From Lutjanus erythropterus (Eukaryota > Chordata > Actinopteri > Lutjaniformes > Lutjanidae): DNA of 64,000 nucleotides. The notes under the pieces were generated by a model. It searched no databases, was not told the origin of the DNA, and saw only the letters and a program-made list of their open reading frames with translations. Position numbers and translations under genes: made by a program. The stretch spans positions 26,285,753 to 26,349,752 of the forward strand of contig CM034607.1 in assembly GCA_020091685.1 (NCBI GenBank). The letters are read 5' to 3'. This document shows, one piece after another, positions 9,767 to 34,063 of the stretch. How positions within the stretch are numbered: the first letter of the stretch is position 1; each line of letters opens with the position of its first letter.

Positions 9767-12700
9767 ATGTCGTGCAACATGGCTGTGACCGAGGCTGGAT
9801 GTGATCTTACTTACTGCAAAATGAGGGGAATTGTCGCCGTTCTCACCGGTGAGAGATTAAAAATATACAATTATCATAATTTATATGAATGACAAGCTGA
9901 TTATATTTTAATTAGTGAAACAAACTAAACGCGTTTATTGATTATGTGCTGAAAAGATAAATTAAACCTAATTGCAAAGTGCTTTTCTGCTCTACTTTTA
10001 TGGAAACATCACATAAATCGCTTTAAATTAAATGGTGCTGCCAATAAAAATGCATAAAAATCTCTACTTTGGGTATTTCCATTGTGGTTAATAATCTGGG
10101 ATGGAAAATGCTTTGTTGGCTACTACTGTTGGTATCTCAATGAGTGACCCAAGTGGTTGCATAACCTATAAGCCCGCAGCATTAGAGGTCTATGCACAAC
10201 ACGCAAATCTACCCCATAATAACAGGATATGTGGAACTCAAAAAACAGCGGATTACAGCTCTAACACACATTTTCTCCTCTGAATGTTTTGCATCATGTG
10301 TGCTCAATGATGCTGAATTCTTTGCCTCTCTTTCCATCTGCAGCTTTCATCAAGGAGAGAAAAATGGGGCTCAATGACTTCATCCAGAAGCTGGTGTCAA
10401 CCCCACATATCTGCCAACAGTGAGTATTTCCTTTAAAAATATTATCCATGAGCGGAGAGCTGCAGCTGCTGGTTGATTAATTCATTAGCTGTCAACTCTT
10501 AAATTAATTTCCAACTATTTTGATCATGCTTTAATTAATCTTTTAAGATTTTGGCTTCTTAAATGTGAATAATTTCTGGTTTCTTTATTCCTCTATGATA
10601 ATAAACTGAATATTTTTGGGTTGTGGACAAAAATGCTGTGTGATTAACATTTTTACACCATTTTCTGACATCTTACAGACCAAACAACTAAGTGATAGAT
10701 GAGAAATTGATTGACCGATGAATTGATAATTAAAAAATAGTCATTAGTTGCAGCCGTACAATGTGGAAAAAGTTTGGATGGAAACTCAGGGAGTGTCTCT
10801 GGGCGTCAATTACTTCCTGGCTCTAGTATTTATTTCTGATCATGAGCCCATTCATGTCCAGTGTCCAATCCAATCAGCCACCTGAGTCTGGCAGGACATT
10901 CTGTGAACTGTATAATCTGGGTCCAAGAAGCCTGGGTAAGAATAGTCCTTTCATGACGAGCCAGTTAGCAGCCTCTCCACTGCCTAATCACCTTTCGCAG
11001 CAAATCCCATCTGTCCCCTAGACGAGGATAAAGTGGTAATTCAGTTATTACATGATACATGGCTCGTCCCATCACAGCGTCCTGACCTCCAGGTCGGGGT
11101 CTTGCTGGCAAAATACCCTTTGCTCGCCGCGTCTGTCCCGTACAGATGCTTTGTAAGAAAAGGGCGTCTGAGCGTCTGAGTCCTCCCGCAGAGTCGTCTG
11201 AACCTGCCTGTTGTGGGTCAGCAGATTAAGCTTTTTCTCAGACAGGTTAGACACCGATGAGCCGGTCCAAAACTTGACCTGTCTGGACGTTTCACACGGT
11301 CATTCACAGACCAGTAGGGAGCATCCATTCAGCTTTTCAGACTCACAAACGAGGGACCTAAATTAGCAGCCAACTGCTGCAAAATGTGCACATGGCTGGT
11401 GGATTTGCTTCACTCACAAGCCAAAAAAAAAACAAAAAACTAATAGTAATCTTTTGAGTAGCTGGTAAAATTTGGGCATACACTGGCCATTCATGCCAAT
11501 GGACAAAAAAGTTCATTTTGAAACTTCTGCTGATTTCACTGTGTCACAAAACTCAAATGTAGTTGTTGATATTGAATCCAGGGCTGCAACTTCAATTGTC
11601 AATTATTTTGTCCATCAAATGACAGAAAATGGTGAAAAAAAGTTGATCAATGTTTCCTAAAGCTTAAAATGACATCCTGAAATGTCTTGTTTTGTCCACA
11701 ATCCAAAGAAATTTAGTTTACCATTAGAGAGCAGTACAGAAAAGCAGAAAGTGTTCATATTTCAGAAGCTGAAATCAGAAAATTTTTACATTTTTCCTTT
11801 AAAATTTGACTGAAAACGATAGTTGGTAATTAATTTAACAGTTGACAACTGACTAATCACTGCAGAACACTAAATGAACACATGAACACTAAATCACATA
11901 ATGAAATGACAGTGGCTGATGTCAAAATCAATCTTGTGACCAGCTCTGTGTGTTTTTTTCCAGTGTTGAAGTTAACAACTTCCTGAAGATTGATGAGAAT
12001 CAGAACGAGGAGGTTGAAAATGAACTTCCTGAAAGTCCGGTAAGCAGGAAATGTTTACTGTCTGACATTATGACTCATCTTCTTTTCAAACTATGGCCAT
12101 GTATTCATAATTTCCCCGTGTCTTTTCTTCTAGATGTGCCTACATTCGCGAAGTTCACTGGCTGAGGAGACTCAGTAAGTAGCCTTATACTAACACTACT
12201 TTTAATATACACAACAGCTCAGATTTGTTAAAAAAAAAAAAAGAAAAAATCAATAAAAATCCTAATCACCTGTTTGTTTCTCTGCATTAGGATCAAACCC
12301 TGTGATTTTGACTACCTCAAAATCATCGGCAAAGGCAGCTTTGGAAAGGTGAGTCTTTATGTAACTGATGTCTCTTATCTGCTCATACGTATCTGCTGCA
12401 ACACCCCCATCGCTCATGCAAATATTTGCTCTATTACAGGTTCTGCTGGCTCGACACAAGGAGTCCACCAAATATTACGCTGTTAAAGTGTTACAGAAGA
12501 AAATCATCATGAAGAAGAAAGAGGTAAAGCCTTTAGATATGGTTTCATTTCACATTACACACTGAAAACTCCGGCAGAGATCAAGATTAATCGCCATACA
12601 TGCAGCTGAATCCATATTCCTCCTGTTTCGTAATGTAAAATGTCATTGTGATGAATGCGGCATTAAAGTAACTTTTATATACTGTTTTCCTTCCAGCAAA

Positions 12701-32100: not shown

Positions 32101-34063
32101 CTAAATCTATAGGTTGTATTTTCACTGCTCACTCAAAACAAAGCTTCTTCATTAGTGCACGTTGTTTCTTTCAGGCCTGTTGAGTCCGATGAAGAGGGAG
32201 CTGCTTCTAAGACTTCAGTCTGAGATCGAGAACGTTACGGACGCGTGGCTCAGCACAGCGCTCAAGTCTCTGCTGCTCATCCAGTCCAGGTCTGAGCAGA
32301 GCACAGTTTTTATTTAAAAAAAAAATCTTTAAGGTCATACTCTGCAGCGGGATGAATGTTGACTCAAAGGATGATGTAACCCTGGACACTGTTCAGAAGC
32401 TCGGAAGTTGTTTTTGTCTGTGCTGAATTTGTTTGGATATAAGCTCATAATTCATTCAGTGTATCATTTATTTACTCCAGTTTTAATGTTTTACTCAGCT
32501 GCAGCTGGGCCAACAGCAGTTCATGATAAGCAGCTCAACATACTGACAGTGTAAACAAGTCTTTGCCCTGATAAAGCTTTTTGTTTTCACCCTGTATGTA
32601 TGGGTGTGTGATATTCCACCAACAGGGGGAAGTGTATGAATGTGTTGGTCACCACCACTCAGCTGGTTCCAGCTCTGGCCAAAGTGCTGCTCTACGGCCT
32701 GGGAGACGTCTTCCCCATCGAGAACATCTACAGCGCCACAAAAATAGGTACGTACGGTATAAAGAGTGCAATTAGTTCTCCTCTACTTTGACGGGTAGAA
32801 AATGTGTTAAGATGCTGCTTTTAAGCTTCTGTGCTAAATGTCTAAATATTTTGTCCTTTGGTTTCCTTTCATGCAGGAAAGGAGAGTTGCTTTGAGAGGA
32901 TTGTCTCTCGCTTTGGGAAGAAAGTGACATATGTGGTTATAGGTGACGGTCGTGATGAGGAGTTTGCAGCAAAACAGGTAAACTTCAGTTTTCTTTTGTG
33001 GTCGATATTCAAGAGAGCAGAGCAGCCGATCTATGCCAATATCAAAACAAGGAAAAGTCTTGTATAATTCCATTGTTCCATCCTTATTACAATCTAATAT
33101 ACATCAGTATCTTTATCTAATATACATTATTATCTGTTATCTTTTTTATTATCAAGGAACATGTTGTTTCAGATGGATTTTTAATTAAATATGAAATATA
33201 TTCGGTCATGCTGTGGCTTCCAGAACATGACTGGTATTTAAGGGAGAGTAGAGTCAGAAGAGACGTCATTCAACTACATTATAACATAACAGGTTTAGAT
33301 GAGATTTGCAATTTGTCTTCGGTCTTCACTGCAGGTAAGTGCAAGTACAGTTATTGAGACTGCAACTTTGTTTGTTTAAAAGTTGTCCACATCAGACTGA
33401 GGAGCTTACAAGTCCAGATGTGGCTGTAAACAACTCAAAAGTTTAATAAGTCATAAACTAAACAGTCCAACAAGTTAATTTTTGAGGGGAAAGTAGGGCT
33501 GGGCAGTATTAATATATCAATATCATGATGTGATACTAGATATCAACACGTCAATCATGATACAACAATATCCGAAATGGATATGATATTGTTTCCTGGT
33601 TTTAAAGGCTGCATTACAGTAAAATTATGTAATTTTCTGAACTTACCAGACTGTTCTAGCTGTTATTTTATTTGCCTGTACCCACTTAGTCATTATATCC
33701 ACATTACTGATGATTATCACCAATCACCGATAATCATCTCTAAAATATTGTTGCAATATGCAGCGGTCCAAGTCCAGTGTGATTTACCTGTTTGACGAGC
33801 CTGTTTCCAGATCTGTGAATCACCAGCTTCTTCTCAGATTTCTTCATTCATATAAGTGGAATATAATTGAAGTTTAAAGCTTTGGTCTGTTATTTTTTGT
33901 TTTGAGATTTTTTTTCATCATTCTGTAGCTTTCCAGTAGTGTGAACATAAACATATTTCGTTGTGTCTGTCTCTCTGCGTAGCACAATATGCCTTTCTGG
34001 CGGATCTCCACTCACGGCGACCTCGTGTCCCTGCACCAAGCGCTGGAACTGGACTTCTTGTAA
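23141..34063 (+). CDS. eya3: Eyes absent homologue 3 (HAD tyrosine phosphatase / transcription co-activator)
   Basis: A nuclear co-activator of Six factors and a protein tyrosine phosphatase that acts on H2A.X Tyr-142. Eighteen coding exons: 23141-23197, 24817-24866, 25104-25198, 25289-25369, 25462-25516, 26123-26232, 26479-26616, 26797-26882, 28020-28197, 28766-28920, 29097-29180, 29282-29371, 30198-30256, 30416-30576, 32175-32289, 32626-32747, 32877-32977, 33983-34063. They join in frame to 605 aa (human EYA3 is 573). Residues 1-335 are the divergent Tyr/Ser/Thr/Pro-rich activation region with [13 protein letters not shown]. Residues 336-605 are the EYA domain: [14 protein letters not shown] with nucleophile D341 and D343, a variable loop, and GDGRDEE at 568-574, ending [21 protein letters not shown] at the N-terminus identifies EYA3 rather than EYA1/2/4. 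The start may be M1 or M9 ([11 protein letters not shown]). Intron 7 uses a GC donor. Catalytic residues are intact. Confidence 0.96.
23977..24305. repeat. Dispersed repeat family C, copy 3, in an eya3 intron
   Basis: Begins CTACAAGGAACTTTAATATG and ends TTGTTGTAGCTTTAT. It shares GTTGATTTTGG, CAGGCTTGTTTTATC and GCTTATGTAGGTCGTATAG with the other copies. This is the longest copy and carries the segment lacking in 15677-15919. Confidence 0.6.
28415..28640. repeat. Dispersed repeat family A, copy 2
   Basis: Diverged match to 22036-22336 and 52454-52715, with AATCAGGTCATGATTTCTGT, CACATCTCTACTGCTGGTAT and ACAATCTAGATGGATAAA. Lies in eya3 intron 9. Confidence 0.55.
29935..30150 (-). mobile_element. 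LINE reverse-transcriptase remnant
   Basis: Read on the minus strand, the frame gives [16 protein letters not shown], then [19 protein letters not shown] and [11 protein letters not shown]. This is the order and wording of the palm region and following part of L2/Rex-type non-LTR reverse transcriptases. The part between (including the catalytic aspartates) is missing, so the copy carries an internal deletion. It sits antisense in an eya3 intron next to a 'gggctgcac' repeat remnant. Confidence 0.55.
30577..32174 (+). other. eya3 intron 14, no further feature seen
   Basis: A 1.6 kb intron. It contains an ATA/TAA microsatellite (about 30897-30921) and AT-rich unique sequence. I see no convincing alternative exon. 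Confidence 0.5.
33493..33800 (-). repeat. Dispersed 'gggctgggc' fold-back repeat in eya3 intron 17
   Basis: Begins AGGGCTGGGCAGTATTAATA with alternating ATATC/GATAT words. The interior CTTACCAGACTGTTCTAGC and CCACATTACTGATGATTA matches a dispersed percomorph repeat known to me from recall. No coding frame. Confidence 0.5.

What the first reader, a model, noticed from the sequence alone, without database searches (positions are those of the whole stretch)
9767..34063. An SGK kinase next to eya3: likely the missing member of the EYA-SGK paralogon
The SGK gene sits directly upstream of eya3 in the same orientation. In human, EYA4 is linked to SGK1 (6q23) and EYA2 to SGK2 (20q13), while the EYA3 region (1p35) has no SGK gene. 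EYA3, XKR8 and SRSF4 are otherwise the same neighbourhood as here. An SGK with an SGK1-like N-terminus at the eya3 locus is best explained as an ancient duplicate kept in fish and lost in mammals. A later local copy of sgk1 is less likely given the diverged linker.
Basis: partly seen in the sequence, partly recalled or inferred. Interest (0 to 1): 0.7.

Follow-up and report, generated by a model that had tools for sequence, protein, structure and literature searches.

The report
Fish's fourth SGK kinase beside eya3
Next to the eya3 gene this fish carries an intact stress-kinase gene of the SGK family that is not a copy of the three SGK genes humans have, and gene trees, intron positions and neighbouring genes all point to an ancient fourth member that our lineage probably lost.

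Summary
An intact 13-exon SGK gene (CDS 9767-15208, 430 aa) lies upstream of eya3 (stop codon ends at 34063), same strand, followed by two xkr8-like genes and srsf4. The window's own genome (937.6 Mb) could be searched, which decided the question. It holds at least five SGK genes. One beside eya4 and a MYB gene groups with human SGK1, one beside an srsf4/6-type and a MYB gene with SGK2, one beside a MYB gene and near eya1 with SGK3. The window gene falls outside all three. Placing it inside fish sgk1 or sgk2, or (with the fifth gene) inside sgk3, is rejected (AU p under 0.03, two models; the weaker SH test rejects fewer). It keeps three introns the fish's own sgk1 has lost and lacks one that sgk2 and sgk3 share. 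SGK> EYA> <XKR has the same order and orientation at eya3 and eya4. Best reading: the eya3-block member of an ancient paralogon, probably sister to SGK1, older than the fish-human split. Not tested: other fishes, expression, function. Human sequences, and human absence of the gene, are recalled.

The parts
9767..15208 (+). SGK gene coding region, 13 exons: 9767-9848, 10344-10419, 11964-12039, 12134-12174, 12291-12348, 12440-12523, 12697-12828, 12937-13049, 13539-13662, 13764-13859, 13958-14113, 14228-14317, 15044-15208; 430 aa
   Evidence: spliced translation without internal stop, GT-AG at 12 of 12 introns; PDB search; Pfam Pkinase E 5.9e-72 and Pkinase_C
9767..9848 (+). first coding exon, SGK1-type N-terminus (LTYxxMRGxVAxLxA)
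   Evidence: 0 of 5000 shuffles reach the score against the recalled human SGK1 N-terminus or that of the fish's own sgk1
10344..12039 (+). exons 2-3, remnant of the C-terminal helix of a PX domain (protein residues about 28-66)
   Evidence: matches SGK3 PX structures 1xte, 1xtn, 6edx, E 3.7e-6 to 1.1e-5; Pfam PX positions 49-82 of 84, 21.5 bits against a cut-off of 21.6
12134..12174 (+). exon 4, diverged linker without the INLGPSxNP motif of SGK1/2/3
   Evidence: alignment
9525..9532 (+). CRE-like site TGACGTCA upstream of the gene
   Evidence: pattern scan; function not tested
9613..9618 (+). TATA-like box
   Evidence: pattern scan; function not tested
29097..34063 (+). eya3, Eya-domain exons: 29097-29180, 29282-29371, 30198-30256, 30416-30576, 32175-32289, 32626-32747, 32877-32977, 33983-34063
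   Evidence: spliced translation and identity
26133..26618 (+). part of the eya3 N-terminal region (matches 26133-26234 and 26478-26618)
   Evidence: tblastn with recalled human EYA3
40743..45324 (-). XK-related gene (first xkr8-like copy; pieces 40743-41569 and 44887-45324)
   Evidence: Pfam XK-related E 1.7e-55 and 2e-20
48143..51354 (-). XK-related gene (second xkr8-like copy; pieces 48143-48961 and 51022-51354)
   Evidence: Pfam; best PDB match XKR8
53201..58770 (+). srsf4, RRM-coding exons
   Evidence: tblastn with a recalled human SRSF4 N-terminus, 83-92% per piece

Best explanation
The gene is a full-length, probably active SGK kinase and the eya3-block member of an ancient SGK/EYA/XKR/SRSF/MYB paralogon, that is, a fourth SGK paralogue made by the early vertebrate block (genome) duplications. 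It is probably sister to SGK1, is kept in this fish and is presumably lost in mammals. Shown: intact gene, sequence outside the three human-type clades, intron differences from the fish's own sgk1, and the duplicated neighbourhood. Inferred: the exact duplication round, the loss in mammals, and function. Expected action (recalled knowledge of SGK1): PDK1 phosphorylates the T-loop (T256) and mTORC2 the hydrophobic motif (S420), the active kinase phosphorylates RxRxxS/T sites on ion-transport regulators such as Nedd4-2, and the SGK1-type N-terminus, derived from a truncated PX domain, keeps the protein short-lived instead of tying it to endosomal PI3P as in SGK3.
For: Own-genome searches give at least five SGK loci and four EYA loci. 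Tree: C14 with human SGK1 (98.7/99), C10 with SGK2 (98.9/93), C21 with SGK3 (99.7/99), window gene outside all. AU p, LG+G4 then C20: window inside fish sgk1 0.0098, 0.0275; with C5 inside fish sgk1 0.0048, 0.0184; inside fish sgk2 0.00035, 0.0029; with C5 inside fish sgk3 0.0007, 0.00005. Introns 4/5, 5/6 and 8/9 are present in the window gene and fused in fish sgk1; an intron inside exon 9 shared by sgk2 and sgk3 is absent here. Same order and orientation SGK> EYA> <XKR on C17 and on C14 read in reverse. srsf4 beside this SGK, an srsf4/6-type gene beside sgk2; MYB genes beside the other three. Chance proximity is very rare in random placement. Residues K127, E146, D222, D240, T256, S420 and PPFY 295-298 are conserved with human SGK1 2r5t. 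PMC6585022 puts EYA and XKR in the human 1/2/8/20 paralogon and reports ((20, 8/18), (1, 8/6/2)) for five of its families, the same shape as the best SGK tree.
Against: A sister relation of (window, C5) to the whole SGK3 clade is not rejected (AU 0.22, 0.27), and to SGK2 only marginally (0.0465, 0.085), so the exact pairing is open. The SH test rejects only two of 13 trees under LG+G4 and one under C20. The human rows were recalled; only the SGK1 kinase part and the SGK3 PX helix can be seen to agree with PDB alignments. An earlier tree with a recalled zebrafish Sgk1 did not reject a teleost-sgk1 sister (AU 0.18); the fish's own sgk1 superseded it. In PMC6585022 other families show other shapes: EYA is ((1/6, 8/6), 20) and XKR is ((20, 8/2), 2/1/8), and the paper argues against two genome duplications. 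No MYB gene was found on C17.
Confidence: 0.88

Rival explanations
1. A teleost-specific duplicate of sgk1 (third-round genome duplication or dispersed copy) that evolved fast and landed beside eya3.
For: The kinase is closest to SGK1 (78.6% to human, 79.2% to the fish's own sgk1) and shares the SGK1-type first exon. A tree with a recalled zebrafish Sgk1 did not reject it (AU 0.18), nor does the SH test.
Against: With the fish's own sgk1, AU rejects nesting in fish sgk1 (0.0098; 0.0275 under C20). The gene keeps introns 4/5, 5/6 and 8/9 that fish sgk1 has lost. Its EYA and XKR neighbours match those of the sgk1 block in order and orientation, and 12 introns exclude a retrocopy.
Confidence: 0.05
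2. An SGK2-lineage gene, as a public name of the sgk2b kind would suggest.
For: Fish transcriptome papers use the names sgk2a and sgk2b, though which gene bears them was not checked; srsf4/6-type genes sit beside this gene and sgk2; (window, C5) as sister to SGK2 is only marginally rejected (0.0465; 0.085).
Against: Own sgk2 is the C10 gene, grouped with human SGK2 (98.9/93); the window gene inside fish sgk2 is rejected (0.00035; 0.0029). The exon-9 intron shared by sgk2 and sgk3 is absent. Identity to human SGK2 is 68.8%, the lowest of the three.
Confidence: 0.04
3. A pre-2R SGK duplicate outside the SGK1-3 radiation altogether.
For: The AKT-rooted tree with C5 leaves the window gene outside the other three clades at weak support (85.5/44).
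Against: That rooting follows the long C5 and AKT branches; without C5 the window gene and SGK1 lie apart from SGK2, SGK3 and AKT (93/81). The SGK1-type exon 1 and the block structure fit a member of the quartet.
Confidence: 0.03

Closest known systems
[quoted passage not shown]
   Same: SGK1-type first exon, truncated PX helix, kinase region 78.6% (human) and 79.2% (own C14 copy), T-loop, hydrophobic motif, PPFY
   Different: outside the SGK1 clade, linker without INLGPSxNP, three introns that the fish's own sgk1 lacks, beside eya3 instead of eya4
SGK2
   Same: AGC kinase of the SGK family; an srsf4/6-type gene nearby
   Different: 68.8% identical to recalled human SGK2, which has no SGK1-type N-terminus; extra exon-9 intron in the fish's sgk2
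SGK3 (PX-domain SGK)
   Same: residues 29-69 match the end of the SGK3 PX domain
   Different: no full PX domain; 70.3% to recalled human SGK3; lacks the exon-9 intron
Fifth SGK of this genome (C5:26.70 Mb)
   Same: SGK1-type exons 1 and 2, similar start of exon 5, pairs with the window gene in the unrooted tree at 76.3/61
   Different: much more diverged (66.5% identical), intron 9/10 lost, no EYA, XKR, SRSF4-like or MYB match on C5

Membership tests
SGK family kinase | AGC kinase domain closer to SGK than to AKT/S6K/PKC, with C-terminal extension | tested here: met
   SGK1 616 bits, AKT2 360 bits; Pkinase_C found
SGK family kinase | catalytic Lys/Asp/DFG, T-loop Thr, hydrophobic-motif Ser | tested here: met
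   K127, D222, D240, T256, S420 conserved with 2r5t
SGK family kinase | kinase activity, PDK1/mTORC2 dependence | not testable with these tools
   needs protein
SGK1 orthologue | nests with human SGK1 and fish sgk1 | tested here: not met
   rejected by AU, 0.0098 and 0.0275, not by SH; own sgk1 is the C14 gene
SGK1 orthologue | linked to EYA4 | tested here: not met
   eya3 here; the gene named eya4 is on C14 beside another SGK
SGK2 orthologue | nests with SGK2 | tested here: not met
   inside fish sgk2 rejected, AU 0.00035 and 0.0029
SGK3 orthologue | complete PX domain | tested here: not met
   only the end of the domain matches, Pfam PX 49-82 of 84
Member of the EYA-SGK paralogon | same gene order and orientation as another EYA block | tested here: met
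   SGK> EYA> <XKR on C17 and on C14 reversed
Member of the EYA-SGK paralogon | split from SGK1 older than the fish-human split | tested here: met
   window gene outside fish plus human SGK1 (98.7/99); human rows recalled
Member of the EYA-SGK paralogon | present beside eya3 in other fish lineages, absent in tetrapods | not testable with these tools
   no other vertebrate genome held

The most novel reading that the evidence does not exclude
The vertebrate SGK family began as a four-gene set made by block duplication, with the shape ((SGK1, eya3-linked SGK), (SGK2, SGK3)). The PX domain was cut back and the short-lived SGK1-type N-terminus arose once, on the branch leading to SGK1 and this gene. 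The fourth gene was kept in ray-finned fishes, possibly as two copies (C17 and C5), and lost on the way to mammals, so fish studies of 'sgk1' or 'sgk2b' may mix distinct kinases.
Probability: 0.6. Interest if true: 0.55.

Novelty: new member of a known kind. Interest (0 to 1): 0.5.

Why it matters
SGKs link cortisol and osmotic stress to ion transport, and fish papers speak of SGK1 (PMC3245286, PMC4377849) or of sgk2a/sgk2b (PMC6215684). A fourth, SGK1-like kinase with its own regulatory region would change how those data are read and would need its own name and its own probes. It also fills the empty SGK place in a classic four-fold paralogy region and gives a case of domain loss, PX cut back to a short N-terminus, that can be placed on a tree.

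Tried and rejected
Rfam at gathering scores found 0 matches in the window. Ten longer ORFs between 0.9 and 9.3 kb gave no Pfam family over cut-off, so no gene was recognised left of the SGK; of 10 ORFs in flanking loci one, in L013, gave C2H2 zinc fingers, the other 9 nothing. Small trees with recalled human rows and with a recalled zebrafish Sgk1 favoured the window gene near SGK1 but could not separate it from a teleost sgk1 duplicate (AU 0.18) or from SGK3 (0.47); the fish's own genes replaced them. The AKT root was unstable (it joins SGK2 or C5 by model and sampling), so the claims rest on unrooted tests. Of the 13 trees none placed the window gene alone inside fish sgk3; that was not tested.

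Papers: 10 searches. Terms sgk + eya3 + paralog: 0 papers; sgk, mybl1, mybl2, synteny, whole genome duplication (4 of 5): 0; sgk2b: 6, of which I saw passages in two (PMC6215684, PMC7581945) and only the listing for the other four. PMC6585022: passages and part 1 of 2 of the Results; its main text holds 'sgk' 0 times. PMC3091672, PMC10897887, PMC4377849, PMC5000704: passages. PMC13143792: one passage in its reference list, plus the listing. PMC3245286: listing only; my terms occurred 0 times. That nothing in print describes an eya3-linked SGK holds for these searches only. A paper on the Myb paralogon that I recalled is not held. Map positions of human genes not in PMC6585022, the effect of the SGK1 N-terminus on turnover, and the alternative EYA4 exon are recalled.
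Full report
What is there. The window (64,000 bases, 39.2% GC) holds a complete SGK gene on the + strand. Thirteen exons from 9767 to 15208 join into an open frame of 430 residues with GT-AG at 12 of 12 introns. The nearest solved proteins are human SGK1 (2r5t, 616 bits), then AKT2 (360 bits). A TATA-like box (9613) and a CRE-like site (9525) lie upstream. eya3 follows on the same strand; its Eya-domain exons end with the stop codon at 34063, and the domain is 80.7% identical to recalled human EYA3 against 72.2% to a recalled EYA1/2-type domain. 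Two XK-related genes on the other strand, one of them tested and closest to XKR8, and srsf4 complete the neighbourhood.

Anatomy of the protein. The first exon resembles the SGK1 N-terminus, recalled human and the fish's own; 0 of 5000 shuffles reach the score in either case. Residues 29-69 match the C-terminal part of the SGK3 PX domain in 1xte, 1xtn and 6edx (E 3.7e-6 to 1.1e-5), and Pfam PX covers profile positions 49-82 of 84, just under its cut-off (21.5 against 21.6 bits). So the SGK1-type N-terminus looks like a cut-back PX domain with a new start, and this gene has it. The linker lacks the INLGPSxNP stretch of recalled human SGK1, 2, 3 and of the fish's sgk1 and sgk3. Catalytic residues, T-loop T256, hydrophobic motif S420 and PPFY 295-298 are kept. 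An active kinase is therefore likely; activity was not measured.

The fish's own genome. After seven unanswered calls, the genome search placed the window at C17:26285753-26349752 of a 937.6 Mb genome in 444 contigs, unnamed; that it is a teleost is inference from gene content and compactness. EYA search: 26 matches at four loci. I name them eya3 (C17, window), eya1 (C21:15.34-15.37 Mb), eya4 (C14:18.08-18.10 Mb) and eya2 (C2:33.88 Mb) by resemblance to a recalled EYA1/2-type domain, by a second version of one exon on C14 that I recall from EYA4, and by neighbours; eya1 against eya4 is the less certain part, since both are about 93% identical to the recalled domain over its best piece. SGK search: 102 matches. 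Five places I take as SGK: C17 (window), C14:18.257-18.260 Mb, C21:14.516-14.521 Mb, C10:12.884-12.886 Mb (further 5' in L074) and C5:26.704-26.706 Mb. The matches elsewhere I take as other kinases; they were not each examined, so five is a lower bound.

Tree. Kinase regions of the five genes were put together from fetched DNA and compared with recalled human SGK1-3 and AKT2. C14 is 90.5% identical to human SGK1 and groups with it (98.7/99); C10 groups with human SGK2 (98.9/93); C21 with human SGK3 (99.7/99). The window gene is 78.6% to human SGK1, 68.8% to SGK2, 70.3% to SGK3 and 79.2% to the fish's own sgk1, and lies outside all three pairs. Of 13 trees tested, the best has (window, C5) sister to SGK1 with SGK2 and SGK3 together. 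AU p values (LG+G4; LG+C20): window inside fish sgk1 0.0098, 0.0275; (window, C5) inside fish sgk1 0.0048, 0.0184; window with human SGK1 0.0091, 0.0273; window inside fish sgk2 0.00035, 0.0029; (window, C5) inside fish sgk2 0.00016, 0.0037; (window, C5) inside fish sgk3 0.0007, 0.00005; C5 inside fish sgk1 0.00003, 0.0065; C5 inside fish sgk2 0.0295, 0.0266. Not rejected: window alone sister to SGK1 (0.46, 0.49), (window, C5) sister to SGK3 (0.22, 0.27), C5 inside fish sgk3 (0.135, 0.236); (window, C5) sister to SGK2 is marginal (0.0465, 0.085). The SH test is weaker: under LG+G4 it rejects only the window gene inside fish sgk2 (0.031) and the pair inside fish sgk3 (0.013), under C20 only the latter (0.016). 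By AU the tree excludes a recent sgk1 or sgk2 copy; it does not fix the deep pairing.

Introns. The window gene has introns 4/5, 5/6 and 8/9; the fish's own sgk1 has all three fused. sgk2 and sgk3 share an intron inside exon 9 that the window gene, C5 and sgk1 lack (junction 4/5 was checked in three of the five genes). The window gene is therefore not a copy of sgk1 as it now stands in this fish, and the exon-9 intron sets {sgk2, sgk3} apart from {sgk1, window, C5}, as in the best tree. Whether that intron was gained or lost is not known.

Neighbourhood. On C17 the order is SGK (+), eya3 (+), two XK-related genes (-), srsf4 (+). On C14 it is XK-related (17.984 Mb, +), eya4 (-), sgk1 (-), MYB-type (18.421 Mb): read in reverse, SGK> EYA> <XKR as on C17. 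On C21 an XK-related gene lies about 89 kb from eya1, in the same EYA> <XKR orientation, and sgk3 lies about 0.8 Mb away next to a MYB-type gene. On C10 sgk2 lies between a MYB-type gene (12.870 Mb) and an srsf4/6-type gene (12.923-12.925 Mb). In random placement, three SGKs within 1 Mb of an EYA came up in 3 of 200,000 draws, three EYAs within 150 kb of an XKR in 0, and two SGKs within 60 kb of an srsf4-like gene in 3 (a simple line model with approximate midpoints and distances chosen after seeing the data). No MYB match was found on C17, and no EYA, XKR, srsf4-like or MYB match on C5; such counts are lower bounds by the tool's own statement.

Literature. PMC6585022 (Results part 1 of 2 read; [quoted passage not shown] this is the shape found here if SGK1 is 6q, SGK2 20q and SGK3 8q (recalled) and the window gene stands for 1p35. 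The same paper finds other shapes for other families, among them EYA ((1/6, 8/6), 20) and XKR ((20, 8/2), 2/1/8), and argues against two genome duplications, preferring smaller block events; my evidence shows block duplication, not its mechanism. SGK is not in its main text. A salmon paper states that SGKs are poorly studied in fish (PMC6215684).

Verdict. Presence in non-teleosts and loss in mammals are expected but were not tested. Function by analogy with SGK1 is inference.

Noticed in passing
G000 C5:26701500-26709500 (L070, - strand): A fifth, fast-evolving SGK with an SGK1-type first exon, 61-67% identical to the other SGKs compared, with intron 9/10 lost; perhaps a fish-specific duplicate of the window gene.
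   Followed up: partly
window 8365-8484 and 9084-9203: A 120-base direct repeat (82%) 719 bases apart, directly upstream of the SGK promoter, with a second pair 8729-8785 / 9038-9094 (79%).
   Followed up: no
window 40743-51354: Two tandem XK-related genes; over the matched 189 residues they are 52% identical to each other.
   Followed up: partly
window 43283-44755 and 46285-46616: Degenerate 21-base tandem repeats (ATTATTTTGAGATA-like) around and between the two XK-related genes, in both orientations.
   Followed up: no
G000 C14:18082796-18083100 (L025, L028): The gene named eya4 carries two adjacent alternative versions of one Eya-domain exon.
   Followed up: no
L013:1600-4968 (C17, about 11.5 kb right of the window): Long open frame of 1123 residues with C2H2 zinc fingers.
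   Followed up: no
G000 C2:8347561 and C13:38784733: Two further MYB-type loci not linked to any SGK found.
   Followed up: no
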